The position numbers were made by a program, and so were the translations under genes. DNA of 64,000 bases from Bolinopsis microptera. Its lineage: Eukaryota > Ctenophora > Tentaculata > Lobata > Bolinopsidae. The stretch covers positions 2,022,312 through 2,086,311 of the forward strand of contig NC_087084.1 in the NCBI RefSeq assembly GCF_026151205.1, read 5' to 3'. This document shows positions 91 through 46,800 of this stretch, in pieces. Each line of letters starts with the position of its first letter. Position 1 is the stretch's first letter. The notes below the pieces were generated by a model. It saw only the letters and a program-made list of their open reading frames with translations. It searched no databases and was not told the origin of the DNA.

Positions 91-3000
91 ATTGTGACAC
101 GTGTGACATGAGGGAGGTAACACAAGGGTTTGTTACGTGTAACAGGCCGGAGGATGCTAAACCGATGGGAAATCTAGAGACTGCTTCTCAAGCCTTACTT
201 CTCGCTGCTCTCAAAGGTAAACTTAAAATTGTTAAGATTTATTCAATTGAAAGAGAGGCTGCGTGATAAAAAGTCATAGTAGGCAATTTATTTCTGAAAT
301 GACGAATTGAAAAAAGGTAAAAACGACTCATTTAACAACATCTAATCTTGTGACTTCATGGTAGAAGATAGGCACACTGAATTATTTCTGAAATAAAAAT
401 CCGAATAAATGTATAAAACGACTACTTTACTAACAGGTGATAACGCAGCTACAGTCTACTTACTTCAACACACATGTGTAAGACCTGACGTCGCTGATTT
501 CAACGGACTTACCCCTCTGATCGCTGCAAGCGTGAGTATAACATAACACTTAAAACTGAAATGAAAGTAAACATTCTCGGTGTACCCCTAAAGCCCTAAC
601 GTGACGTCACAATTAATCACTGACGTCACACTTTATCACGTGACGTCACACTTAATCACGTTACGTCACACTTAATCACGTGACGTCACACTTAATCACG
701 TGACGTCACACTTTATCACGCTCCGGCACCCCGCAGGTATTCTGCAAAACAAAGATAGTGAACATCCTGTTAGATAACGGAGCAAACGTGAACCAGTTGA
801 CAGATAGTGGGGTGTCAGCTCTGGTGGCGTGTCATCTTCACCTCTACTTCAACTCCCAGTGTGGGTATAGTCTCAGACACAGGAAAGGTAGGTGTTTATT
901 GTAACATATTATTATGTTTGTTTATTATAACATATTATTATATTTGTTTATTGTAACTAAATATTATTATTATGTTTGTTTATTGTAACATATTGTTATG
1001 TTTGTTTATTGTAAAATATTATTGTGTTTGTTTATTGTAACATATTGTTATGTTTGTTTATTATAACATATTATTATGTTTGTTTATTGTAACTAAATAT
1101 TATTATTATGTTTGTTTATTGTAACATATTGTTATGTTTGTTTATTGTAACATATTATTATGTTTGTTTATTGTAACATATTACTTTGTTTGTTTATTGT
1201 AACATATTATTATGTTTGTTTATTGTAACATATTACTTTGTTTGTTTATTGTAACATATTATTATGTTTGTTTATTGTAACATATTACTTTGTTTGTTTA
1301 TTGTAACATATTATTATGTTTGTTTATTGTAACATATTATTATGTTTGTTTATTGTAACATATTACTTTGTTTGTTTATTGTAACATATTATTATGTTTG
1401 TTTATTGTAACATATTATTATGTTTGTTTATTATAACATATTATTATGTTTGTTTATTGTAACATATTATTATGTTTGTTTATTGTAACATATTATTATG
1501 TTTGTTTATTGTAACATATTATTATGTTTGTTTATTATAACATATTGTTATGTTTGTTTATTATAACATATTATTATGTTTGTTTATTATAACATATTAT
1601 TATGTTTGTTTATTGTAACATATTATTATGTTTGTTTATTATAACATATTATGTTGTTTGTTTATTATAACATATTATTATGTTTGTTTATTATAACATA
1701 TTATGTTGTTTGTTTATTATAACATACGTACTATAACATACGTATTATAACATACGTATTTAATAATAATAATATTTAATTATTATGTTTGTTTCCTGTG
1801 TATTATTATTATGTTGATTTTAACTTTTTTCTGTTTGACGGATTTAAATAATAAAAGCAAGGTTAACCACTGAACATGCACCAATCTAACAGTTTTACAC
1901 GTTTTCAGAGCCTTTACACAAATCTGGAGCTAATGAAACATTAGACGGGCCAATAGAAATGTTCGCTCAGCTCGCTCTTTCCTCTAAAATAGCTAACGAA
2001 TCCGACGACGAGGATCAGGAGGAGGTACTTTCACTTTCACTTTCACTTTCAAAAGTTTCACTTTCATTTCCACATCTATTCTCACCAGTTCGATTTTATT
2101 TTTGAAACGATCTATTAATTGACTTATGATGTTGCTTCGACAGTAGGTCATTTACTACAAAATATATTAGATCGGGATTAAAGATGAGGAAGAAAAAGAA
2201 GTAGAGAAAGAGGTACCACTACAGGGAGAAGTGTCACGGGTTACCTCATCCCTCAGCGGTTATTAATTATCTTTATTTATTGGTATTTATATTATATGCA
2301 ATCATTATTGATCGCGTTAGTCGATACAACAAGTTGTATTTTGATACCTTTGATATGAACTTGTCGTATGAGAACTGATAAGGTTATAATTAGATTCTTC
2401 TTCACTAAATTAAATCACATCCAACAAGCCCCTTTATGAATTGCCATAATATCAATATTATGATAATATATTATTTTATTACCCTAACTTGCTCCTTTAT
2501 AAAATAATCCATTTCCCCTTACAGAACCCACTGACGGGTCTGAATACACCACAGTAGTGGTTTATGGTAAAAGATACTTTGTACGGGGAGCCGACGTTTT
2601 GAAGGATCTTCAGGTACTTTCACTTTTTCAGTTTTTCTGTAATCTTAAATTTACCGTCATATATATATTAAAATGTTATTAACTTCTATTTATCTGTTTT
2701 TGTTTCTGAATTCCTCCTGACCTACAGGTACCGCAATGTTCTACACTCCCCACACCAGAACAACTAAGAGAAACCATCAAACTCTTATTAAGACGAGGTG
2801 CCGACCCAAAAATAGGCTATGTCCCTGTCCCTGCACTGATCCTAGCTATACTAGCACCTGACGTGGAGGCAGTGGAGCTGCTACTGAAGTCAGGTGCTGA
2901 CCCGACTGCGCGGCTCGGGGAGAAGTACGGACATAAGTCTCCCCTGCACGTGGCGGCTGGACTTCACGGTCCTGGTACGTGACTTATTGTTTCATGTTAA

Positions 3001-6000
3001 CTTCAGCTCTGGACTTCAGCTCTGTCTTTTTTGGATACCTTTTGTACTCTTGTAATGTTTGATCAACTTACCGTCTCTTATTGTTATTATTATATTGCCC
3101 ACTAAGTTATGATTTTACACTATAGTTTAACTTCTAAAGATAACTTTTTACTTGGTTACTGAGTCCTGTATTTTCAGATATAATTATATCTATGTATAGT
3201 TTGTATGTAGTGTACACTGTACATAATCTCCTATTCGGATTCCACTCACTTTCTACTTAGTACTGATTCACTTTCCATTTTACTTACCACCTGGCAGCAC
3301 ACGCCACATGTAAGAATAAAGCGGCCACCTACATTAAGTGTTGAGTGTACACTACTAGCAAACATCAGGTTTTGTGTGTAAGTTTCCTTTGTCCTCTACA
3401 GCTTGAAATCTTGCGATGAAGACTTTAGTGTCGGCTCCCTACAATCATCATCTCATTAGTGTAACGTTTTAACGTGCAATCTAATTTAGGGAGAGCTATC
3501 TGTCTTGTTTAGTACATTCCAGGCATATATTCTGGTGAGGCAATATTAGGTATAGGTAATAATAATAGGTAGATTAATATATTATAGACGTTTACTTTCG
3601 CTTTCGCTTTATATGTTTACCACACTTTCTCTTTATAACTCTGTTGTTTTGCAGGCGGACCAGCTATAGTGAAACTCCTGCTACAGGGAGGAGCAGATCC
3701 GAACGTTCAGGACTCTCTCTCATTCTCTAGAAGTGGAGCTCTGCAGTGGAAAACTGTGGATGAAATTGACAGGTTAGTGAAACACAAGGAAATATTTTAT
3801 ACCAGGTCTACTGAGTCTGTTTAAAGTCTGATGAGGACTACGAATGTAGTTTAGATGAGACCGGGTGACGTAGTGAATGATTACACTCGTGCCACCAGTC
3901 ACTGCATTGTAAACTAATGTAATTGTAAACTAATGTAATTGTAAACTAATGTAATTGTAAACTAAAAATATGAAAGACGCCACAACAGGTCTCAACATAG
4001 ATGGGATGTAATAAAGCACATTTCACACACTGACCTTATTTCCACCAGCAAATTTAAAGACGGGTTGTGATGAATTAAAGACGTCGAAGCCTTTAAAATG
4101 ATCAAAATTAAAGCCTTCGCCAAAGTTAACCGTCTTTATATAACGAACTGAGTGTATGTTAATTGTAAAGCTGTACCTGGTCCTGGTTAATGGTTATCAG
4201 AAACAGGGTAGCTTCTGAAACTTGTTAAAGGTCCGTTCCTGGTATTTTTAAAATATGAAGTTGAGTAGATAATATGCGTCTTGAAATAAGTAATGTAATG
4301 AGCAACTATAATAGCACATGCATTCTGAACGTGCGCTCAGTTAGTCATTCAGTCAGTCATCTCCGTTATTACTCACCAATTACAATTCTACAAATCTATT
4401 TATTGAGGACGTTACAGATAAGAAGGAATATATTTAATGTAGTTCGAGGAGTCCCCACTCTCCTCGTATCCTAAGATAGCGTTTCTCTTGTCGCAAATAT
4501 GGAAGGTCGTGAACTGATGAAGAAGAGAGAAAATTTAAGTGCAGTACTCTAAATCTGTTATATTTGTTATATCAGATAGCAACAATTCTTGTTTCTTGAG
4601 ACGTCGTTCTCTGCATTTACATGTGTAACAGATTGATGCAGTGTAATAATGGTATTTATAACTTATGATATTGTTATTGTGGTCTGATGTTGATTAAGTT
4701 TGTGTAATAACTTGAAGTGGTGAAACAGCCACGGTTTGTTGACCCCCCTCCGTAATCAATTTTACACATAGATTTTGTGTAATAATTGCACTAGCGTAAT
4801 CATTTGGAACCCCCCCCCCCCCCCCCCTCGGCTGATTACGTAATATGTGAGCGACCCCTTATTGCCCCATGAAAACTGCGGTTCTCTCTTGACAATGTAT
4901 ACACTCATTCGCTAAGTAAGTAGTGCACCAGAACCGGGCATTGAAGTCTGTATACACATTGTTGTACAATGTACATGATGTAATATGATACTATGTCAGA
5001 TCTGAGATCGGGTTATCTTAAGAACCGATGTATAAAATAATGTGCCCCACTCATGCTCTGCGATCACCTCACTCATCAAGTTTATAAGGTACATATTAAA
5101 AAACGTGTAAAAGCTGTTAAGAAATGTTTTGGTATCGATAATGAAATTCAATAAGGATTAAGTGCACGGTGCATCTCTGTGTAGGAATTCGAAACATATC
5201 TAAATAAACAAATTAAGGTCGAATTATACCTTATTCGGAAGTGAGAGAACTTGGCACAAGCTCTTTGTCCTGTCCCCTAAACACTGTAATTGGGTTCAAA
5301 TTGCTTTAATGAGGATGAGTGTGTATGATGTTTTCTGAATCCAGTCTATTTGTAATTCATAACCGTGCTAAAGTCATTAGTCTCCTGAATCATCTTTTGC
5401 ATGTCTAAACTGTAAGACGCCATGTTAATATGCATGGATAATTTCTTACACTCGACTAATCGCGCATCAGAGTACTAATCTTTCACAGTTTTCGGATCCC
5501 GCACTGAGGTCTAGGGTCTAGCATGTAAACTTGGCACCAAGTTAGCAAGTTATTTATACCTTAGCTTATAGCACTATGTCAACAGCATATTTCTCTGGCA
5601 CTCTGGCAGATCTTCCATCGATACTGACACTTCAGATGGTGTAAAGCTTAGTCTAACACAGTAAACCTAGCTTTCCCTCAAGTTTGTATTCACTCAGTTA
5701 AATCAGGCAGTAGTATGTAATTAAACAACTGAATTGGACGCTGGCTAATGGCTTGTGTTGGCTCTTCTTCAAATTGTTAAGATTACGTAGTCACTCTTTC
5801 AACACGCTGTCAAAAGCGCGCAAGTTATTTTGTAGCCATGGAAACACCGCTAAGTATGAAGAAAGGGTGGTATCGTCATTCTTTTTTTGAGCCGCGCAAA
5901 GGAAAATTTGCATGTTTACCGCATGGTTAAGTTATTAATTTTCAACACAGGTAGTTTTGTTGTTTTGATCGATGTGACAATTCCTGGCCTATCTTATTCG

Positions 6001-9000
6001 TGAAGATAATGAATTCGAGATTAAAACTTATTTTTCAGTGAAGGGAACATGCTCGGCTCAACACCTCTCCAAGTGGCATGCTCCATGGACCAAGACTACG
6101 AAAACAGCACAGAAGTGATAAAACTCCTACTGGAACACGGAGCCAATACTAATGTTGTGTGTAGTGGTCACTCTCCACTTACACTGGCAATATACAGTGG
6201 AAATGATAAGGGTAAATTTAGAATTTTAAATTATAGACTCGGTGCCAATAAAGTAATAAGGACAGGTGTGATTTGTGATCCGAACTCATCAAAAGCTCAA
6301 TTCCATGTGCAGCAAATCACAAAATACATATGGATTTCCACGATATTTAATATTCCGAACACGGCATCTGGTCGCGACTCGGTCATTTTCTTTTTGGCTA
6401 ATCCTTAAATTCGAACACTCCAGCCGTGGAGTTACTGCTACAGAAAGGTGCTAACCCATCTCTGGACCTTGGTTCACCAATTGGATCAGCTTTGTGTGCT
6501 GCAGTGGACACTACTTGTGAACACCGGAGAAGTAACGAACAGAGATTAGGTTTGTTTAATGTACCATTCTTCAAGTTTAACGTTTCTATGAAATATCTTC
6601 AGCATGAATAGATTAGGGATTTTACAATCTATCACCGACTTGTTAATAGTACATCTGTAGGTCTACAATCTACATGGATATTATTTTGTATAATGTTCCA
6701 CCAATGAAGTATGATGGCATTTGTTGAACTGTTATTCCACTAACTAAACCCAATTGTGTCCCCGTGTCTCCACTAACTAAACCCAATTGTGTCCCCGTGT
6801 CTCCACTAACTAAACCCAATTGTGTCCCCGTGTCTCCACTAACTAAACCCAATTGTGTCCCCGTGTCTCCACTAACTAAACCCAATTGTGTCCCCGTGTC
6901 TCCACTAACTAAACCCAATTGTGTCCCCGTGTCTCCACTAACTAAACCCAATTGTGTCCCCGTGTCTCCACTAACTAAACCCAATTGTGTCCCCGTGTCT
7001 CCACTAACTAAACCCAATTGTGTCGTCGTGTCTCCACTAACTAAACCTCCCCACAGCAATAATAAACCAGCTGATGACAGTGGGAGGGGACATAATGTCC
7101 TTGGTTCCCGTGGGAAAGAGTGGGAAACACATGGGAACTGCTGTAGACTACGCTATGCATGTGTTCTATCAGGTTAGTGCTGAATAAGCTTCAGTTCCTT
7201 TTAAAAGCAGAGTGTGAGCTAGCTTTGTTGAAACTTATGATAATGAAATAAACTTTAAATATATATATCCAGGCTTTTATCTGATACAATCACTCACTAA
7301 ATAATTGCGGATCCCTGATAACCCGATCCCACTACACAGGACAAACGAATAGCGCACACTCCATTCCACGCCCTGACCCCGGCCGAGAGGGAGATATACA
7401 TCGCCAGAACCAACCTCCTCAACCACATGTCTACACTTCTCAGGGACGAGGTCCAGAAACGGGAACAGACCATGAGAGAAGAAGCAGGTACTTGATAAAA
7501 TCAATCAGTCCATTAATTAGTTCACTAATTAGTTCACTAATTAGTTCACTAATTTGTTCACTAGTCGATATATATTTCCTTGAGAAGGGTGGTGTTCAAG
7601 CCAAATTTTAAGAATTAATCTTAATAGTATCCTTTAATATTTAATCCTTTAATAATGTTAACACACCATAAGAGTGGAAACCTGCTAAGGTTGAATAGCG
7701 AAGACGAGAAGTATTATTTGTTTGTTGCTATCCATGTTATTTATTTTGCTTAACCCTAATAATATAATTGATGTTGTAGATACTGGCACTCTTGCCAATC
7801 ATCTTTAAAACTGGGGAGAGGGGGGTGCAAACTGTTGCCTGGTGTCGTTAGTAATCAGATGCCCCCACTTCAGGGCCCCATTCTTGGTCCGTTCAATTTA
7901 CCATTATCAATGATGTTCTACATGGCTTATCTGATGTTTCGAATGCTCTGAGATTTATCCATCAATACCTTAAAAGTTAAAATATCTCAAAATTATTTTT
8001 CTCCGTACCCATTTACTAAAAAATCTCTGGAAGTCTGGACAGTCGTTTTACACTAAGAGTTAACGCAGGTCCAGAACAAGATGAAAGTGCTGGAGCAACA
8101 CCCTCAAAGTCCAACAGACGCGCTAGTCGTGCAAAAATTGGCGCTAATGGTGAAAAAGTGGGTGCTAATGGTGAAAAAGTGGGCGCTGATGGTGAAAAAC
8201 TGCGCTCTAGTGGTGAAAAATTGGGCGCTAATGGTGTAAAAATGGGCGCTAATGGTGAAAAATTGGGCGCTGATGGTGTAAAAATGGGCGCTAATGGTGA
8301 AAAAGTGGGCGCTGATGGTGTAAAAATGGGCGCTAATGGTGAAAAAGTGGGCGCTGATGGTGTAAAAATGGGTGCTGATGGTGAAAAACAGGGTAAGAGA
8401 GCTTGTACCGATGGTCCAACAAGGAAAGACGATGAGCTTCACGCTAGTTTCAGCGAAGCCTAATCTCCATCTTCCTTCTATTGATCTGTGCTTTCTTTGT
8501 GCTATCATCATCTTTTCGCACGAAGCATGTTTATCACGTACCATATCCTGAAATACATCTAATAGAAATATCTACATCTAAAGTGTCCACAGTTTTTAAC
8601 CATTCGTGTGTATGTGTGTGTAATTCTTTATTATACTCTGCATACATTTTCCATTCACCTTTAATTTACAAGTAGTCGCAAGCAGAGTTTGCTATTTGTT
8701 TACCGTGTTCGAGATTCCATCATAACCTGGCGGCAATATTTCATGACCGATTTAAAACTTTTCCATGCAAAATAATCCTACAATCTGTCACCTCTCAGAG
8801 TTGATGGAAGCTGAGGGAAAGAAAGGACACAAACCAAAGATGCTGTTCAAGTATTGCTATGAGTGTGGTCGCAGCACTGGTTAGCCGATATTTTCATTGA
8901 TCAGTTGATATTAATTAGTTATTTGGTTGATACAAAATCATTAATAATTGATATATGCCTAGCGAAATTAGGATTTTACAACTTTCTACCTGCTACCTTG

Positions 9001-13514: not shown

Positions 13515-14245
13515 GTAAGTTTATAACATCTCAAATTTTATATATAGCGTTGTTTGATGGAGGCATGGTTTTGGGACTGTATAGTCAGTATATAGTGTTA
13601 GCTGTGCGGGGTACCTTGTGTTCTGGTGTTTTGTAGGACTAGCTGAGATCACACTGTTTGCTACTAACTTTCTGGATCTCAGCGAGATAGACCCTTATAT
13701 TAGTTTTGGTAGAGTTGGTGGGAACTTGTGTCAGAATATATTAGGAGGGTGCGATGTAGCGGGGACTCACTGTACCCAGGGAATAGCTTGTACTTTTATC
13801 CTGACCCTACTGATACCCCTCATGGTCCACTAACTAAACCCAATTGTGTCCCCGTGTCTCCACTAACTAAACCCAATTGTGTCCCCGTGTCTCCACTAAC
13901 TAAACCCAATTGTGTTTCCGTGTCTCCACTAACTAAACCCAATTGTGTCCCCGTGTCACCACTAGCTAAACCCAATTGTGTCCCCGTGTCTCCAATAACT
14001 AAACCCAATTGTGTCCCCGTGTCTCCACTAACTAAACCCAATTGTGTCCCCGTGTCTCCACTAACTAAACCCAATTGTGTCCCCGTGTCTCCACTAACTA
14101 AACCCAATTGTGTCCCCGTGTCTCCACTAACTAAACCCAATTGTGTCCCCGTGTCTCCACTAACTAAACCCAATTGTGTCCCCGTGTCTCCACTAACTAA
14201 ACCCAATTGTGTCCCCGTGTCTCCACTAACTAAACCTCCCCACAG

Positions 14246-20815: not shown

Positions 20816-21127
20816 GTAAGTTTATAACATCTCAAATTTTATATATAGCGTTGTTTGATGGAGGCATGGTTTTGGGACTGTATAGTCAGTATATAGTGTT
20901 AGCTGTGCGGGGTACCTTGTGTTCTGGTGTTTTGTAGGACTAGCTGAGATCACACTGTTTGCTACTAACTTTCTGGATCTCAGCGAGATAGACCCTTATA
21001 TTAGTTTTGGTAGAGTTGGTGGGAACTTGTGTCAGAATATATTAGGAGGGTGCGATGTAGCGGGGACTCACTGTACCCAGGGAATAGCTTGTACTTTTAT
21101 CCTGACCCTACTGATACCCCTCATGGT

Positions 21128-24100
21128 CCACTAACTAAACCCAATTGTGTCCCCGTGTCTCCACTAACTAAACCCAATTGTGTCCCCGTGTCTCCACTAA
21201 CTAAACCCAATTGTGTTTCCGTGTCTCCACTAACTAAACCCAATTGTGTCCCCGTGTCACCACTAGCTAAACCCAATTGTGTCCCCGTGTCTCCAATAAC
21301 TAAACCCAATTGTGTCCCCGTGTCTCCACTAACTAAACCCAATTGTGTCCCCGTGTCTCCACTAACTAAACCCAATTGTGTCCCCGTGTCTCCACTAACT
21401 AAACCCAATTGTGTCCCCGTGTCTCCACTAACTAAACCCAATTGTGTCCCCGTGTCTCCACTAACTAAACCCAATTGTGTCCCCGTGTCTCCACTAACTA
21501 AACCCAATTGTGTCCCCGTGTCTCCACTAACTAAACCTCCCCACAGCAATAATAAACCAGCTGATGACAGTGGGAGGGGACATAATGTCCTTGGTTCCTG
21601 TGGGAAAGAGTGGGAAACACATGGGAACTGCTGTAGACTACGCTATGCATGTGTTCTATCAGGTTAGTGCTGAATAAGCTTCAGTTCCTTTTAAAAGCTG
21701 AGTGTGAGCTAGCTTTGTTGAAACTTATGATAATGAAATAAACTTTAAATATACATATATATCCAGGCTTTTATCTGATACAATCACTCACTAAATAATT
21801 GCGGATCCCTGATAACCCGATCCCACTACACAGGACAAACGAATAGCGCACACTCCATTCCACGCCCTGACCCCGGCCGAGAGGGAGATATACATCGCCA
21901 GAACCAACCTCCTCAACCACATGTCTACACTTCTCAGGGACGAGGTCCAGAAACGGGAACAGACCATGAGAGAAGAAGCAGGTACTTGATAAAATCAATC
22001 AGTCCATTAATTAGTTCACTAATTAGTTCACTAATTAGTTCACTAATTTGTTCACTAGTCGATATATATTTCCTTGAGAAGGGTGGTGTTCAAGCCAAAT
22101 TTTAAGAATTAATCTGTTGGATGAGAAATAGTATCCTTTAATAATGTTAACACACCATAAGAGTGGAAACCTGCTAAGGTTGAATAGCGAAGACGAGAAG
22201 TATTATTTGTTTGTTGCTATCCATGTTATTTATTTTGCTTAACCCTAATAATATAATTGATGTTGTAGATACTGGCACTCTTGCCAATCATCTTTAAAAC
22301 TGGGGAGAGGGGGGTGCAAACTGTTGCCTGGTGTCGTTAGTAATCAGATGCCCCCACTTCAGGGCCCCATTCTTGGTCCGTTCAATTTACCATTATCAAT
22401 GATGTTCTACATGGCTTATCTGATGTTTCGAATGCTCTGAGATTTATCCATCAATACCTTAAAAGTTAAAATATCTCAAAATTATTTTTCTCCGTACCCA
22501 TTTACTAAAAAATCTCTGGAAGTCTGGACAGTCGTTTTACACTAAGAGTTAACGCAGGTCCAGAACAAGATGAAAGTGCTGGAGCAGTGGCGTAACGTTG
22601 CCTGTTGGCGCCCCCCTGCCGAAAAAGGCGCCCCCCTGTTGGCGCCCCCTCCCCTTTTGGTGCCCCTCCCTAAAATTGAACAAATTAGGTGATTTAAAGA
22701 AAACACCCTCAAAGTCCAACAGACGCGCTAGTCGTGCAAAAATTGGCGCTAATGGTGAAAAAGTGGGTGCTAATGGTGAAAAAGTGGGCGCTGATGGTGA
22801 AAAACTGCGCTCTAGTGGTGAAAAATTGGGCGCTAATGGTGTAAAAATGGGTGCTAGTGGTGAAAAAGTGGGCGCTGATGGTGTAAAAATGGGCGCTAAT
22901 GGTGAAAAAATGGGCGCTGATGGTGTAAAAATGGGCGCTAATGGTGAAAAAGTGGGCGCTGATGCTGTAAAAATGGGCGCTAATGGTGTAAAAATGGGTG
23001 CTGATGGTGAAAAACAGGGTAAGAGAGCTTGTACCGATGGTCCAACAAGGAAAGACGATGAGCTTCACGCTAGCGAAGCCTAATCTCCATCTTCCTTCTA
23101 TTGATCTGTGCTTTCTTTGTGCTATCATCATCTTTTCACACGAAGCATGTTTATCACATACCATATCCTGAAATACATCTAATAGAAATATCTACATCTA
23201 AAGTGTCCACAGTTTTTAACCATTCGTGTGTATGTGTGTGTAATTCTTTATTATACTCTGCATACATTTTTCATTCACCTTTAATTTATATGTTAGGCGC
23301 CCAAGTAGTCGCGAGCAGGGTTTGCTATTTGTTTACCGTGTTCGAGATTCCATCATAACCTGGCGGCAATATTTCATGACCGATTTAAAACTTTTCCATG
23401 CAAAATAATCCTACAATCTGTCACTTCTCAGAGTTGATGGAAGCTGAGGGAAAGAAAGGACACAAACCAAAGATGCTGTTCAAGTATTGTTACGAGTGTG
23501 GTCGCAGCACTGGTTAGCCGATATTTTCATTGATCAGTTGATATTAATTAGTTATTTGGTTGATACAAAATCATTAATAATTGATATATACCTAGCGAAA
23601 TTAGGATTTTACAACTTTCTACCTGCTACCTTGATAAGTTGATAGTACCCCAAAAATTCAATATCCATCCTAATGGTGATATATTTCAGGCGTAAAACTT
23701 TCTCCCTGTACGAGATGTTTCACTGTTTCCTTCTGTTCTCAACGGTGTAAACTAAAAGCCTGGACCAGCCGCCACAGGAAGGAATGTACTAAATTAGAGA
23801 ACAAACAGAAGGAAAAGAAGGAGAGGGGACCTTCTGTTTCTGTTTCTCCACCCCCTGTTAAAGTAGTGAAAAAGGAGGAGTCTGCCTCAAAATCAGGTCA
23901 GTTTTTTAGATTTATTAACTTTAACTTTAACTTTAGGCGCTAATTTAGGATGTTTCAGCAAACTTTCTCCGGATACAATAATATTGGGTACAATAACAGT
24001 TACCTGTTTATCTATTTCATCATGAGTCTCTACTTTATTTTCAAGCACTCCTTTCTATTTCAGACACGGGCAAAAAAGGCAAAACACGCTCAGTCTCCAA

Positions 24101-37761: not shown

Positions 37762-40700
37762 ATGCCTATACAAATGGAAGGTAAAAAAGTAAAGAAGACT
37801 CTACCCCTACAGAGAAGCTCCAAACCTCCCACTATTGATCTGTCACGTGATAAAGTGTTAGATGATCCTTTCCCTCTCGTCTTCGAGAAATCGGTGGGTG
37901 GTGTTTTGCTCGCTATAAAACTGACAAATTTGTATCGAAACTTTCAAGCTGATGATGGTTAGCTAGTTGCTAATTTACGCTTTATTTGAAAGCCAAGTGA
38001 CACAACAAAATCCTTTAATTTATACATCACGTGAAAAAAACGAAACTGTATAATTCACACGTCACGTAATAATTACACAGGTCCTGAAATCAGAGCCACC
38101 AGGGCTGACAGAACCGCGGGGGGCACCCAACAACGATATATCGTACATGGCCCAGGACTACGCCAAACAGATACTTGAGATTATGAACGATTTGAGGAAG
38201 ATAAAGAAGTTTTGCAATGTGGTGCTTATTGTTAATGATGCTGTGAGTGCGGATATTTTATATTAAATTTATAATCACATTTTTTAAACATTTTTGCCCC
38301 AGGAATTACAATTGTGTGTCCCAGCTGGTGTGCCCCAAGTGTGCCTAGCTAGATTAGCAACTGGCGGAGCTTTACTATTTACAATTACAGGAGATACTGG
38401 CCCACAAGTCAGTGCTAGCTGCTAGCTCCACCTTCTTTCGTGCTATGTTCGAGAGTAAACAAGCGGAGAATCAGAGTGCATCTGTTACTATATCCGTGAG
38501 TAAAATATTAAATTAATTTATTAATTTATTTTAATATTTTATTATTAAAATATTAAATATTTTATAATTTTAAAATGAGGCAACGGGTTGTGCTATTTTA
38601 TTTTGTGCGAATCGTAGAAAACAGTGAACTTAAGCGATCAGAGTACTGCAAGTTACAACTATCGATTTCATTAAATAACCTAAATTAAATTAAATAAACT
38701 TAAATTGAATAAACTTAAATTAAATAAACTTAAATTAAATAAACTAAATTAAGAATTGAGTTTATTTTAAACCAAGTGATTCATACCTATACACGTTGTT
38801 TGTATACTTACGTGGTTTGTATACTTACACTTTACAATTTACAGATCGAATGGTGCACAATGAGCGCATTGTCCATATCTATCGTTTTTAGTTAGGACCT
38901 GCTAAACCGTGTGGTTTATATACTTACACTTTACAATTTACAGAGCGAATGGTGCACAATGAGCGCATTGTCCATATCTATCGTTTTTAGTTAGGACCTG
39001 CTAAACCATGTGGTTTATATACTTACACTTTACAATTTACAGATCGAATGGTGCACAATGAGCGCATTGTCCATATCTATCGTTTTTAGTTAGGACCTGC
39101 TAAACCGTGTGGTTTATATACTTACACTTTACAATTTACAGATCGAATGGTGCACAATGAGCGCATTGTCCATATCTATCGTTTTTAGTTAGGACCTGCT
39201 AAACCATGTGGTTTATATACTTATTACTTACACTTTACAATTTTGGTGCCCTGATAGTTTTCTTTAACTACTTTGGGTTTGTTTTAAAGTTCGATAATAA
39301 TTACAATTTACAGGGTATATCCGAGACAATAGTGGTGCAGCTGATAGAGTTTGCATACACTGGTAATATTGCAGTGGGTAAAGAAAACGTGAAGGACCTT
39401 CTGAGCGCAGCCAGTAAGTGTACAATAAAACTGTTTTTTTAAATCATAGCACGCATACCTACCAAATTTAAGGTATCCTCTTATTATTGTTAAACTTTCC
39501 TCAAATATTTCCACCAGTACAGATTCTGATTAGCTGTCCCTTTGACATATTATAGTATTATATGAGACAGGAAAAATGCCATCTTACTAGGAAGCTTACT
39601 AGGACGTGAGGAGAGTTAGAACTCCTCGGACTACATTAAATCAATTCCTTCTGTAACGTACTGAAGAAATGTAATTACGAATTAATAAATCATAAAATAT
39701 GTTATCTGAACATGTTATCCACTCCCAGGTTCACTAAAGTTTCTTCCTGTCCGGGATGCTTGCTGTGATTTCCTTCACCGTCACTTTAGTGCCAGCAACA
39801 CTGTGGGGATACGCTACTTTGCGTTGCTGGAGGTAATTGGAACAGTTTGTTAAGAGTGATTTTAGTTTGAATATTCGGTATCATGATATTATCTGGTTGT
39901 AATATAACATCTCAATCGTGAATACTGTTTTCATAGTAACCACAGTAACCACAGTAACCACAGTAACCACAGTAACCCCAGTAACTACAATAGCCATAGT
40001 AACAACAGTAACCATAGTAACCATAGTAACCACAGTAACTACAGTAACTGCAGTAACCACAATAACCACGGTAACCACGGTAACCACAATAACCACAATA
40101 ACAACAATAACAACAATAACAACAATAACAACAATAACAACAATAACAACAATAACAACAATAACAACAATAACAACAATAACAACAATAACAACAATAA
40201 CAACAATAACAACAATAACAACAGCAATAATCACAATAACCACAGTAACCACAGTAACCACAGTAACCACAGTAACCCCAGTAACTACAATAGCCATAGT
40301 AACAACAATAACCACAATAACAACAGTAACCACAGTAACCACGGTAACCACAATAACAACAATAACCACAGTAACCACGGTAACCACAATAACAACAATA
40401 ACAACAATAACAACAATAACAACAATAACAGCAATAACCACAGTAACCACTAATCCTCCTCCGCAGGACTGTTCAGACTTGGTCCAGAAATCGGAGGACT
40501 TTATTGCCCGTAACTTTACAGACGTAGCGAAAAGTGAGGAGTTCTTCATGTTGTCGTACAACCAAGTGTGTGAGATAATAAACCTTCAGAAGTACCCTTT
40601 CAGAAACGAACAAGTCAGTGAACTACATAATATTATATATAATATATTATATATATATATATATTAATATATTATATAATATATTATATAGTAATCGCAA

Positions 40701-40843
40701 GGTTGCTGGATCGATACCCGCCATCGGTAAAACCAACCCTGATAATTTGAGCCATACTGATGAGTCCTAATAGGACGAAACACTGTGTCTATGGATAATA
40801 TGTTATATATAATATATTATATTATATATACATACTTTATTAT

Positions 40844-40878
<35 letters not shown>

Positions 40879-43800
40879 GAGGCTGGGCCTGGTTGGCCCA
40901 CGAGAGGATAGCATATGAATGCTTTGCCTACCTCTGGGGTATGGCAGTCCTGTGGGAGGATGCCAGTGGAATCAAGATGTGTAATCAAGGATGATGGTAA
41001 GTGTTGTGGGGTGTGTCATAGATAAACGCTTAAGTGGTGGTTGAGTGTGGAAGAGAGAGGCGAAATAAGACGGCGTTAAAGTAGTCGCTATGTTACACCT
41101 GTCTGGTCCAACTCCTCTGGCACCACTAAGCGTTTAGTGTGGTTTGTAAAGTTGACAATGGTGGAGATGTGTTGGTTGTCGAATATGTCATTGACAGAGA
41201 GGTAGTAGTCCCGGAAATATTGACCTCTTATTTGGGCAATAGCCGGGCACTGTCCGAGAAAGTGTGAGACAGTCTCCTCTTCGTCGCCGCATTTAGGACA
41301 AGCACTTGTGTCTGATTTGCGAATGGTGTGTAGATGTTTGTTGAGGCCACAATGTCCCGTGATGAGGTGCACTGCAGTTCTATAATTTTGTCTGTTGTTA
41401 CTGAGTGTAGTGTTGAGATTTTTGATGATGTTGATGTTTTTATGTCCAAGTGTCAGTTTAGTGTGTCTGGGACCATCAGTAATCCATGATTCTTGATTAA
41501 GTTTTGTGACTTTGTCGTTGATCAGGCGTTTGATGTAAGATTGTGGAATTGGGCAATTCAAAGTGGATTCACTGGTTGTACCATTTTTGGCCAGCTCGTC
41601 TGCTTTTTCATTACCCCACAATCCAATGTGTGCAGCTATCCATCTGATCTCTAAGGTGTTAGTGGATCCGAGTGTATTGAGGGTGTCGTAACAGTCTCTA
41701 GTAGTCCTACTCCTCGTTGAAGGTGAGGATATGGCTTGAATAGAGGAGAGACTGTCTGACCATATGATGATGTGTGTGTTTGTATAAGTTGATAGATATT
41801 TACAAGCTTCGATGATGGCAGTGAGTTCTGTTTGATAAACGGTGCAATAATCGGGAAGCTTGAATGATCTTTCATCTAGTGTAGTGTTGTTGTTGTCTGT
41901 GGTGATAATATAACCAGCCCCGCTACCTGAGTCTGTGCGTGACCCGTCTGTGTAGCAGGTGATGGTTTCACTGGGGATGTTGTCGATGGTGTTTTGGAGT
42001 GAGCCTCTATATCCAATGTTGTCAGCTCCAGGAGTGGTGACCGTGAAGCGTCGTTCAAGCATCATGGTTGGTATAGATAGGTCTCTCTCTGCTTTGGGTG
42101 GTATGTTGAGATCTACCATGAATTGTTTGTTGATAGTGGTGTGAGTTGTGATGGTACCTTTTCTGGGGGCGATAGTTTCGAGGGTTAGGCTTCCATAAGC
42201 TTGAAGCCTGGCTGTGCCCTTTGCTTCACCTCTCAGGAAAAGTATGATATCTGGAGTGTTAGTGAGGTGGTTCAGTGCGATGAAGGGAGTACTAGGCATG
42301 GCACCAGACATCATTCTCAATGCCAATGCCTGAACTCGTTTGAACTTCCTCGCGTTGGTGTCTGTTTGGGTTGCTCTAATCCATATACTACAGCAGTATG
42401 ATAGAATAGGTCTGATGACAGCGGTGTACATCCATTTGCATGTTTTAGGGCTCATACCCCAAGTGGGGCCGACAGCTCTTCTACATTGCATAAGGGATGC
42501 CGTAGCTTTTTTGGTGGTATTGGTGATATGTTCATTGAAATTGAGCTTGCTGTCGAGGGTCACTCCTAGGAATTTGGCAGATTTGGATAGACCTATAGTG
42601 GTGTTACCCACCACCACAGGTCTTAGTGTCCATTTCTTATTCCAGGTAAACATGACTATTTGTGTTTTGAGTGCGCTTATGGATAGATCTTTGGTTTGGC
42701 ACCATTTTTCTATTGTGTTGATGGTTTTGCGTGTTCTGTTCCAGATGATGTCTAAATCATTCCCCTCCGCTAGAGAGAGCAGATCGTCTGCAAAAGCTTG
42801 CAGATAACCTGGTATGTCTCTTGCGGTGTAGGCCAGGAGATCATCGACTACCAGGTTCCAGAGGAAAGGGGAAAGGATGCCACCTTGAGGGCACCCTCTC
42901 CGGATCCGAACCCTTGTCGACTTATCCTTATGATTTAATGTGATGAATCTGTTAGTTACCATGTTGATAATCCATTGTGCTGTGGCCAGATCCACTTTCG
43001 TGGTCTTGATAGCGTCAGAAATAGCCTTGAAAGAGACATTATCAAAAGCTCCCTCTATATCTAGAAAGACGCCTAGGACATATCCCTTCTTAGCTATCCT
43101 GCGCTCGATGGTGTGAGTAACTTTATGAAGGGCTGCTTCGGTTGAACATCCTTTCTTAAAGCCAAATTGTCGTTTGTTGATGTCTTTAGCGATATTAAGG
43201 TCGTGTTGCATATGCCACAGTATCACCTTCTCCTGTAGTTTTAACATCACTGGAGAAAGGGTGATAGTGCGAAATGACTTTGGTTGGTTGTAGTCAGTTT
43301 TTCCAGGCTTTGGGAGAAAGATTCCAAGGGATTCTTTCCACAAAGTTGGAATGTGTTGGGTTTCATGATTTTTTGTCATAATGGTTCTGGTGATGTCTTT
43401 GATGTGTGTCCAAGCTTTCTGTATGATGATAGGTTTGAGGGTGTCGGGTCCAGCAGCTTTCAACGGATCGAAGGATTTAAGAGCCTCCTCGATTCTGTCT
43501 GGGCTGTAGATGGTATTGAGTAAGGTGGTGGTGATTGGTAGAGGACCAGGTGGAGGCACTGGCGGATCAGTGACACTATCCTTGAAGTGGGTTCGTGTCA
43601 TGACCTCCAATGTCTCCTCTGCATTTTTGGTGATGTCTCCGTTTGGTTTGTAAACGGCTTCTAGTGTATGTTTGTTGTCGTTACAGGATTTCAGAATCTT
43701 ATTCATCCTTCCGGATTCCTTAACAGACTCTGTTTCCTGACAAAAAGTTCTCCAGGCATTACGCTGGGAGTTGGTTATAAGTCTGTTGTATTGTTTGTTG

Positions 43801-46800
43801 CTCTCTCTAAGAGCGAGCCACAGGGCATCAGTCTTCTTTTTGCGGGCAGTAATCAGTTTTTGTCTTATTCCCCTCTGTGCTTCCTCTACTTCTTGAGTTA
43901 GCCAGGGGGGTTTGCGGACGGAACTTGAGATGTAAGTAATGGGGCATGCCTCCTCGAAGGCTTCCTTTAGTGCAGTATTGATTATGTCTATTTTGTGATC
44001 AATTTCAGTCGTAGTGTTGATTTGTGTGTTGTTAAGGTTGGGGTTATTCGATAGGATCTCATCAAATCTGTCCAGTCAGTGTTTTTGACTAGTCGGATCT
44101 GTTTGGGTTCCTTCTTTGGCCCTGTAGTTATATCGAACATAATATAGCGATGGTCAGAGTTGGAGTAAAGGTCACTAACATGCCAGTTACTAATGAGACC
44201 TCCTCCCAACTGGTTTGTTATTGTGAGATCGATAATTGAGTTGTGGCCTCGAGAGTTGAGGAAGGTTGGGGATGATCCTTTGTTGGCACATGACAGCCCT
44301 AGGGAGGAGAGAAAGTCAAGAAGCTCCTCTCCCCTTTTATTGCATGCCTTGTTCCCCCAAAGGGTGTGGTGGGAATTGGTGTCCGACCCTATAATGAGCG
44401 GGATGTTGTTATCATTTGCGTATTTTGCTAGAGGTGATGTTTCTTGTGGCGGTACCGGCCCATTTATATCCATGTATGAAGCTGCCAGAATGAGTTCTGT
44501 CGAGCTGAGTTGGATTTTAATGGCCACTTGATCGGGTGTTGTGAATTGTGTAAGTTCCCAACATTTTACTGTCAGGTTTTTGTGCAGTACAATAGCGGCA
44601 CGGGGTCTTTTATCCCCGACCTTGTAGTAATATTGGGTGAGATCCTTATTGATGGGTGGTATTAGGTTTTTGTTATTAGAGTACGGTTCTGTTGCAAGAA
44701 TGATTGGATTTCTCCGGCCGTGAGTGTTGATAAGGAGGGTTTTCCATGCATTGAACTTGCGTTTGAGATTAATTTGGGTGACAGAGTAAGTTTCAGACTG
44801 CTTATTGCGTGCTGCAATAGTAGTTTTTAACTTTTTTTGGCGTCTCTTCTTTTTTGTGCTAGTTTGAGCGTCATTGAGCGGAGTGGAAGCCGTCCCTCCC
44901 CCTAGACAGGTATTATGACCTATCATTGCCGGTGGGGCGCTGAGGAGTTGGACAGGGTCGGGTAGCAGCAGCTGGCCCTCCAGAAGGTACGCATGGTCCC
45001 TTCCAGACAAACAGCCCCCGCCAGACCTTCCCTGAACATGGCTCCCACAGTCCGCTCAATAGACGTTTGTGTGTGAAATTGTGTTTGTTGTTATCTTTTG
45101 TTTGTGACCATATGTTCTCACGTGGGTGCGCGCACCCGCGCGAAGATATGATTTTTTTAGCTTTTAACACAATAATGTCGTATGTCGGTTGGACCATTGA
45201 GACTTGCCGAGAGTCAAAAGTGTCGGTTGAAAGTAGTTGTTGGTCTGATCGCAATGCCAACTGTCGATTCAAAGTCCCCATCCGGCCCGACTGCAAACAA
45301 CTTTACTTGCTTTAGCTGGTCGTTATGGATAGTGACCGTCCCTCCAGTTGGCACCACTGTTGGTAGTAAAGGTTGGTTTTTGTGTTGTTACAGTATATTA
45401 CTTTATAGGGTTCGTGGACGGTGCACAAAGTGCATGAGTCAGACCCAAGAGTCCGTGCACATACATTCGTGTTTGCCGAAGCACACTCTATCCCACGATC
45501 TATAAAGCAAATGGTTGATCAGTGAGGGTGTATCGTGAGTTTTAACACTTTCTGCGAATCGTAGAAAGATGCTGAGAAATACTACGACGACAGTGTTGAA
45601 ATGCCGCCCAATAAAACAGGGAAAATGGGTGCTAATGATCGCATTAAGGCCCGACCTGAAGCGCACACCTAAACTTCAAAAACCCTATAGCTCAATGTGA
45701 ATGAAAGCTGTGAGTGCTCAGGGAGGAAGGATCAGGTGAGTTAAATAGCCAAAAGAAGTGCACGTGCGACTTATGTCCAGTGATGCCCAGCTGGACAGTA
45801 CGGCTTAGTTTCGGCAGGTCGAGTGAAGCCGAGTAAGCCCCCTTACCACGTCAAGGTCACTTAACCGACTCCAGGCTGCAGTTCCAATCAATCCAAGAAT
45901 GAAAGACACGAACAAGAAGTGGGTTGAAAGGAATTACAGTCAGATAAATCAGAGTAAGTGGGCGGAGTCTTCACGAATGCTATGGTGCTCAGGACTGACT
46001 CCGCCGCCGTACTTATAATCCCAGCAATTCTAAAGCGTCCAGGAGGCCCCAGACGAGAGGCGGGAGCCCAAACTCCCCGTGCTAGCCCCGAGAAACGGGT
46101 CCAAGGCCCGAGAGTTTGACAAGAGCCAGGATCGCAATGCTAACTGTCGATTCAAAGTTCCCATCCGTCCCGACTGCAAACAACTTTACTTGCTTAAGCT
46201 GGTCGGTATGAATAGTAACCGTCCCTCCAGCCAGCACCACTCACCCATCCCCGCCGCACCCCCGTGCCAACCCCCAGATCTCAGACCATACCACGAGGAG
46301 CACGAACCCACACCAATCCCGCCCAGGACCCACCCAGCCGCTCGAATTACCGGGAAGCTGCCTGGCTAATGCTCTGGACCAGAACAAAAGGGGGATGTTG
46401 GCTCACGTGCACAAGAATTCAATATATAGATAAGATATACCATATCACGTGTTCAATGTTAATGTAGCACACGGAAATGAGTGGTTGGAATACATTTCAC
46501 AAAACTAACTGTTTCCTTATGGGCTAAATCCCTATTATATTTCTATTTCGTAAATTTTATGACTTTTCGTTAGGGAATCGTTCCGCAATACCAGAGTTAA
46601 GAAGTGGAAACTAGATTTTGAAATCGTTAGTTCTTGAAAGTTTCGGTCTTATTAGTGATATAATGAAAAAGATCCATCAGAAACATGGACCTGGCTTCCA
46701 GTAAATAGTTGATTATTTGTCCAGCATGTCTTAACATGACAATAGGAAACGTGAGTTGTCTACCAAACATACGTGGTTTCCTCCAGGCGAACGTGATTCC

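What the first reader, a model, noticed from the sequence alone, without database searches (positions are those of the whole stretch)
40691..40795. SINE-like element ending in a complete hammerhead ribozyme
The sequence shows every core element (CTGATGA, GAAA, GTC) and three complementary stems, including perfect stem I CCATA/TATGG. Just upstream is a polymerase III B-box-like segment. A tRNA-type head fused to a self-cleaving tail suggests a mobile RNA that trims its own 3' end or circularises, similar to but distinct from known animal retrozymes.
Basis: partly seen in the sequence, partly recalled or inferred. Interest (0 to 1): 0.85.

Follow-up and report, generated by a model that had tools for sequence, protein, structure and literature searches.

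The report
Ribozyme-bearing SINE, truncated copy (retrozyme)
The window holds a shortened copy of a small jumping RNA element of an animal (probably a comb jelly) whose full form joins a tRNA-type promoter to a self-cutting hammerhead ribozyme; such elements are known in other animals, but here the insertions show where copying starts and point to a likely helper element.

Summary
The hammerhead is real: Rfam type I, 35.9 bits, E 2.6e-5, window 40750-40796, cut after C40789. It is a 5'-truncated, 3'-complete copy of a repeat family. The full unit is 277 bp: A and B boxes of a tRNA-type Pol III promoter, the hammerhead, then a spacer; no LTR or long ORF seen. RF00163 matches at least 69 places in this genome, single or in arrays of up to about 6.6 units. 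The window copy keeps the B box, not the A box. After removal of duplicated places, 46 of 51 insertions end at unit 140-149, just past the hammerhead, while 5' ends scatter; a (TA)n-like flank is seen in 26 of 51. This is the mark of target-primed reverse transcription started inside a circular or tandem RNA. Twelve sites lie within 900 bp of GIY-YIG retroelements that I read as Penelope-like, ten within 60 bp; their protein is the likely mobiliser, as others proposed for animal retrozymes. The kind is known (metazoan non-LTR retrozymes; Schistosoma Sm-alpha, a tRNA-derived SINE with a hammerhead). New: the family, its host (inferred ctenophore) and the junction evidence. Cleavage, circles and Pol III transcription are untested.

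The parts
40689..40802 (+). 5'-truncated copy of the 277-bp retrozyme unit (unit about 33/35 to 141/147); edges uncertain by 2-6 bases because both flanks are A/T
40709..40717 (+). Pol III B box (GATCGATAC, fits GWTCRANNC)
   Evidence: sequence; same place in 23 of 31 complete units; consensus recalled
40750..40796 (+). type I hammerhead ribozyme, cleavage after C40789
   Evidence: Rfam RF00163, 35.9 bits, E 2.6e-5
40790..40802 (+). terminal TATGGATA(ATATG): stem I 3' strand and the AT run where most insertions of the family end (unit 134-147)
   Evidence: 46 of 51 insertions end at unit 140-149
40630..40690 (.). left (AT)n microsatellite, insertion target
   Evidence: TRF
40803..40835 (.). 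right A/T-rich part of the target
   Evidence: sequence

Best explanation
A non-autonomous, SINE-like metazoan retrozyme. A 277-nt unit carries an internal tRNA-type Pol III promoter (A and B box), a type I hammerhead and a spacer. Array copies are transcribed into tandem RNA; the hammerheads can cut it into unit RNAs that may be closed into circles. Reverse transcription starts inside this tandem or circular RNA, at the AU run AUAAAUAU directly behind hammerhead stem I, primed by a nicked (TA)n microsatellite, and runs leftwards for a fraction of a unit up to several units. This gives inserts with a fixed 3' end behind the hammerhead and random 5' ends. The enzyme is most likely that of GIY-YIG (Penelope-like, PLE) elements that use the same (TA)n sites. 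The window copy is one such insert that stopped inside the promoter and is probably dead as a source. Shown: unit structure, junction pattern, target, neighbours. Inferred: Pol III transcription, cleavage, circles, PLE enzyme.
For: Hammerhead. Unit of 277 bp, GC 45%, longest stop-free run in a dimer 45 aa, no TTTT; arrays. Junctions: 3' end at unit 140-149 in 52 of 57 inserts, 46 of 51 without duplicated places; 5' ends spread over the unit. Among the 21 loci that the spacer search found without use of the ribozyme, 18 end there (my count). A pure A/T run >=10 touches 29 of 51 inserts, window background 1.6% per position. Seven inserts start inside the spacer (unit 196-260) and four at 136-139 after about one or two turns, so templates held more than one head-to-hammerhead stretch. 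Array units repeat in blocks: L040 0-0.4% apart; L057 reads A A B B A with 0-0.7% inside types, 4.3-4.7% between. A+B boxes in 23 of 31 units, 34 of 2000 shuffles of one unit. In 31 spacer-found units with a complete hammerhead: hammerhead 17/1606 changed, spacer 99/4037, head 161/2007; hammerhead below spacer in 11 of 14 sites, above in 2, one tie. PLE-A/B pieces lie within 900 bp of 12 sites, 10 within 60 bp; 0.14 expected from 425 first-look tails, 1.4 if tails are ten times commoner. Tandem PLE-A also carries an AT run right behind its insertion end (L108). A purified lizard PLE starts reverse transcription inside tandem RNA and cuts AT-rich DNA (PMC11167929, main text read).
Against: No RNA data. 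The five inserts that break the 3'-end rule include all four loci found only by head or spacer (L097-L100), so ribozyme-based finding flatters the 46 of 51. PLE-A has no Rfam hammerhead at E<=1 in the one locus scanned, unlike PLEs in the literature. Pfam finds GIY-YIG (E 4e-7) but no RVT_1 in the PLE-A ORF, and GIY-YIG of PLE-B is below the curated cut-off (E 7e-4); I call PLE-A a reverse transcriptase from motifs recalled from memory. PLE co-location may reflect only a shared taste for (TA)n. The head has no covariance match to tRNA and is the least conserved part (8.0%). In L078 units are 5.7-9.3% apart, not the near-identity that copying one circle would give. Uncut linear array transcripts explain the junctions as well as circles do. 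Units of one array are not independent, so the Fisher p overstates; sign test by site p 0.02.
Confidence: 0.6

Rival explanations
1. An ordinary linear SINE: Pol III read-through transcripts of the last unit end in the flanking (TA)n, and this AU tail primes at other (TA)n sites. The hammerhead is a passenger and no circle or internal start is involved.
For: Most 3' junctions are followed by A/T, as for a SINE with an inherited (TA)n tail; 5' ends at unit 270-273 in 5 of 57 inserts fit a start just before the A box, though that stretch is A/T-rich and matches the flank easily.
Against: Seven inserts start in the spacer upstream of the head and four span about full turns; a solo SINE RNA would stop near the A box. 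3' junctions vary between GGATA and GGATAAAT. The hammerhead is the best kept part.
Confidence: 0.2
2. A true metazoan retrozyme moved by a LINE, not by a PLE.
For: PMC4918200 reports 15-bp target duplications for Nematostella hammerhead repeats, LINE-like (passage); PMC7229834 names LINEs or PLEs; a LINE with poly(A) lies beside the window copy.
Against: No poly(A) seen at the 3' junctions listed; twelve sites lie near PLE-A/B pieces. I did not survey LINEs genome-wide, so this rival is only weakly tested.
Confidence: 0.25
3. Plain satellite DNA spread by recombination, with a decaying ribozyme and no RNA step.
For: Tandem arrays and blockwise identity also arise by unequal crossing-over.
Against: About 50 dispersed insertions, most with a fixed 3' end and scattered 5' ends; hammerhead less changed than spacer.
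Confidence: 0.04

Closest known systems
Metazoan non-LTR retrozymes (Cervera and de la Pena 2020, PMC7229834; abstract, sections 13 and 17 and passages read)
   Same: Type I hammerhead in 150-450 bp tandem repeats, GC below 50%, no LTR/PBS/PPT; PLEs proposed as mobiliser
   Different: 'polymerase III' and 'SINE' occur 0 times in its main text; this family has A/B boxes and a defined 3' insertion end; circles not shown here
Sm-alpha / Sj-alpha SINE-like elements of Schistosoma (passages of PMC2770079, PMC8490949, PMC4918200; the 1998 original not read)
   Same: tRNA-derived SINE with a type I hammerhead
   Different: Other host; Sm-alpha is linked to a tRNA-Gln found by tRNA programs, the head here is not; known copies here are far fewer (at least 69 hammerheads, a lower bound, against >10,000)
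Penelope-like element Poseidon of Anolis (PMC11167929, abstract and main text read)
   Same: Tandem RNA with a hammerhead, reverse transcription begins inside the RNA downstream of it, AT-rich targets
   Different: Autonomous with an ORF; start site about 85-92 nt from the hammerhead cut (111-118 versus 26 in the paper), here 7-16 nt
Plant LTR retrozymes (PMC4918200, passages read)
   Same: Non-autonomous element with hammerhead
   Different: LTRs, PBS/PPT, type III hammerhead, 4-bp target duplication

Membership tests
Hammerhead ribozyme type I (RF00163) | core nucleotides and three stems, gathering score | tested here: met
   35.9 bits against 34; 67 of 69 genome matches over the cut-off
Hammerhead ribozyme type I (RF00163) | self-cleavage | not testable with these tools
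   needs in vitro transcription
Metazoan non-LTR retrozyme | type I hammerhead in 150-450 bp tandem repeats, dimers to multimers | tested here: met
   277-bp unit, arrays to about 6.6 units; the window copy itself is single
Metazoan non-LTR retrozyme | GC below 50%, non-coding, no LTR | tested here: met
   GC 45%, longest stop-free run 45 aa in a dimer; no LTR seen at the insert ends listed
Metazoan non-LTR retrozyme | target-site duplication longer than 4 bp when present | tested here: inconclusive
   many insertions lie in (TA)n, where a duplication cannot be told; not measured
Metazoan non-LTR retrozyme | circular RNA | not testable with these tools
   no RNA data
tRNA-derived SINE | A and B boxes in the 5' part | tested here: met
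   23 of 31 complete units, 34 of 2000 shuffles; the window copy lacks the A box
tRNA-derived SINE | head recognisable as tRNA | tested here: not met
   no RF00005 match at E<=1 or 2; ARAGORN only at a lowered threshold, without a clear anticodon and with hits on the other strand too
tRNA-derived SINE | Pol III transcription | not testable with these tools
   no RNA data
Penelope-like element | RT and GIY-YIG ORF | tested here: not met
   unit has no long ORF
Plant LTR retrozyme | LTRs, type III hammerhead | tested here: not met
   type I hit; no LTR at insert ends

The most novel reading that the evidence does not exclude
The hammerhead fold serves as more than a cutter: with the AU run behind stem I it is the mark at which a Penelope-like reverse transcriptase binds and starts on circular or tandem retrozyme RNA, so that several of the shortest inserts (51-62 bp: L047, L054, L062, L075, L105, L107) are little more than the hammerhead. 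This would explain why PLEs and animal retrozymes both carry type I hammerheads.
Probability: 0.25. Interest if true: 0.75.

Novelty: new member of a known kind. Interest (0 to 1): 0.5.

Why it matters
How animal retrozymes integrate, and by whose enzyme, is left open in the papers read here (PMC7229834, PMC7761336). A family with a fixed 3' end just behind the ribozyme and PLE neighbours at the same (TA)n sites makes that testable. Of the 30 papers listed (34 found), only one held 'ctenophor', and its passages concern another element; so a ctenophore retrozyme, if that is the host, is not among them.

Tried and rejected
Head as a free SINE without hammerhead: all 40 scored head matches (64 candidates) fall in fetched loci with retrozyme units; weaker heads were not scored. 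A second hammerhead family (CTGACGAGAT...GGCGAAAA...GTC, ten places in the listed part): three places read (L101-L103); no stem I seen by eye, so set aside. Host test through one ionotropic glutamate receptor against the PDB: the 60 rows shown of 164 carry kainate, AMPA and delta receptor names, species not shown, not decisive. Hammerhead in PLE-A: none at E<=1 in L093. PLE-A protein against the PDB: nothing at E<=1. Retrozyme-PLE template-switch chimeras: in ten inserts (L041, L052, L055, L057, L058, L064, two in L066, L068, L069; L068 and L069 are duplicates) a 5'-truncated PLE piece follows the retrozyme on the same strand, but the two L066 inserts share 5' flank and break point and are followed by different PLE families, which favours later insertion at the same (TA)n; other orientations also occur (L045, L047, L050, L051, L059, L077). 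The hammerhead conservation first counted on ribozyme-selected units (1.4% against 4.9% in the spacer) was dropped as biased and replaced by the spacer-selected count, for which nine of 40 rows without a complete upstream hammerhead were left out. Compensatory changes: too little variation to test.

Full report
OBSERVATION. A B box (GATCGATAC) sits at 40709-40717. The pair lies between A/T-rich stretches.

FAMILY. The window is part of a 264.65-Mb genome with 13 large contigs. RF00163 finds 69 matches there, 67 over the cut-off; only 74 of 35,380 first-look candidates were scored, so this is a lower bound. An exact core pattern gives 114 matches against 18 for the reversed pattern (some matches are unrelated repeats and the listing was cut). 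I fetched 44 regions at first and smaller sets later. Arrays show a 277-bp unit: A box at unit 9, B box at 53, CTGATGA at 101, cleavage after 133, then a spacer to 277. 23 of 31 complete units keep both boxes; 34 of 2000 shuffles of one unit do. Rfam tRNA does not match in the ten loci scanned, so the head is tRNA-type by its boxes only. The window copy starts at about unit 33-35 and lacks the A box.

INSERTION PATTERN. Of 57 mapped inserts, 52 end at unit 140-149; without six rows that I judged duplicates by shared flanks, 46 of 51. Of the five others, one is an array cut by a DNA transposon (L041, whose second part ends at 146), and four (L097-L100) end elsewhere. Those four are the only loci found by head or spacer alone, so the rule is weaker where the ribozyme did not lead the search: of the 21 loci found by the spacer search, 18 obey it and L097, L099 and L100 do not. 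Five-prime ends lie all around the unit. Lengths run from 39 to 1816 bp; 18 of 57 are 300 bp or more. A pure A/T run of 10 or more touches 29 of 51 inserts, against 1.6% of random window positions; a flank rich in TA/AT steps is seen in 26 of 51, against 0.4%. The junction is usually GGATA followed by TATAT, sometimes GGATAAAT, 7-16 nt behind the cleavage site. Seven inserts begin in the spacer and four near unit 136-139 after about one or two turns, so the RNA template held spacer upstream of a head: tandem or circular RNA. In L040 the units are 0-0.4% apart; L057 reads A A B B A; L042 and L065 units are 1.8% and 1.1% apart, L078 units 5.7-9.3%. The first two fit repeated copying of one template with a change of template, though recombination could do the same; L078 fits an old or mixed array.

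CONSTRAINT. To avoid the bias of having searched with the ribozyme, I used units found through the spacer (40 hits). 31 of 40 have a complete hammerhead upstream, 28 of them with an intact core. Changes: hammerhead 17/1606 (1.1%), spacer 99/4037 (2.5%), head 161/2007 (8.0%); hammerhead below spacer in 11 of 14 sites, above in 2, tie in 1 (sign test 0.02). The ribozyme is the best kept part. The circular RNA folds at -81.2 kcal/mol against -66.8 (sd 4.7) for 100 shuffles, and forcing the hammerhead costs 3 kcal/mol.

WHO MOVES IT. GIY-YIG gives 147 matches from 150 scored of 524 candidates; three lie within 1 kb of a retrozyme (0.06 expected). One element (L093, PLE-A) has a 1002-aa frame with C-terminal GIY-YIG; Pfam sees no RVT_1 there, and I read RT motifs from memory. 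Its 3' end abuts (TA)n. A second family, PLE-B, faces it across the same (TA)n and encodes a weak GIY-YIG match (E 7e-4, below the cut-off). Pieces of PLE-A or PLE-B lie within 900 bp of 12 retrozyme sites, 10 of them within 60 bp; 0.14 are expected from 425 first-look tails, 1.4 if tails are ten times commoner. Two further families, E and F, were defined from retrozyme loci and are left out of that count. In a PLE-A tandem the insertion end is followed inside the element by ATATATATA (L108), parallel to the AT run of the retrozyme. A purified Anolis PLE cuts AT-rich DNA and starts reverse transcription inside tandem RNA, and does not need hammerhead cleavage in vitro (PMC11167929). This makes the PLE enzyme the best candidate, as PMC7229834 proposed in general; it is not proven.

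KNOWN OR NEW. Animal non-LTR retrozymes (PMC7229834) and the tRNA-derived, hammerhead-bearing SINE of Schistosoma (PMC2770079; PMC4918200) cover the concept. New are this family and the 3'-end rule with (TA)n and PLE neighbours. I saw no report of the rule in the listings (30 of 31 papers with 'hammerhead ribozyme' and 'retrozyme', titles and abstract starts; 3 papers) or (7 papers), nor in the parts of PMC7229834 and PMC7761336 that I read; two PLE-hammerhead papers were not held.

HOST. Inferred ctenophore, probably Bolinopsis microptera: a table in PMC11797021 gives that species 265 Mb and 13 chromosomes (passage); the scaffold number differs (346 against 232). No gene test confirmed it.

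Box count corrected to 23 of 31; the spacer-led count of 3' ends, the four exceptions, L078 and the PLE-B test added; confidence of the best explanation lowered from 0.62 to 0.60 because of the exceptions.

Noticed in passing
window 40846-45055 (-): Non-LTR retrotransposon (endonuclease, RT, RNase H in two overlapping frames) whose poly(A) end (T30 at 40846-40875) lies beside the A/T stretch with the hammerhead copy.
   Followed up: partly
L041 (C1:12164500-12171000), about 1707-4673: DNA transposon-like insert with inverted ends, placed at TA inside the hammerhead of a retrozyme array.
   Followed up: partly
L094, L095: Open frames (537 and 473 aa, running off the locus) with GIY-YIG near the start rather than the end; possibly Penelope-like elements with permuted domains.
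   Followed up: no
G000 C8:14321831/14325393, C5:8616480/8620042: PLE-A in tandem with a period of 3562 bp; 40 of 41 listed tail matches are full-length and 100% identical, so it was recently active.
   Followed up: partly
window 6736-7047, 13826-14236, 21127-21537: The same minisatellites recur about every 7.1-7.3 kb, pointing to a triplicated segment.
   Followed up: no
G000 C12:11.78-11.81 Mb, C3:15.86-15.94 Mb: Clusters of glutamate-receptor matches in single open frames of 765-949 aa (four on C12) and 433-445 aa (five on C3).
   Followed up: no
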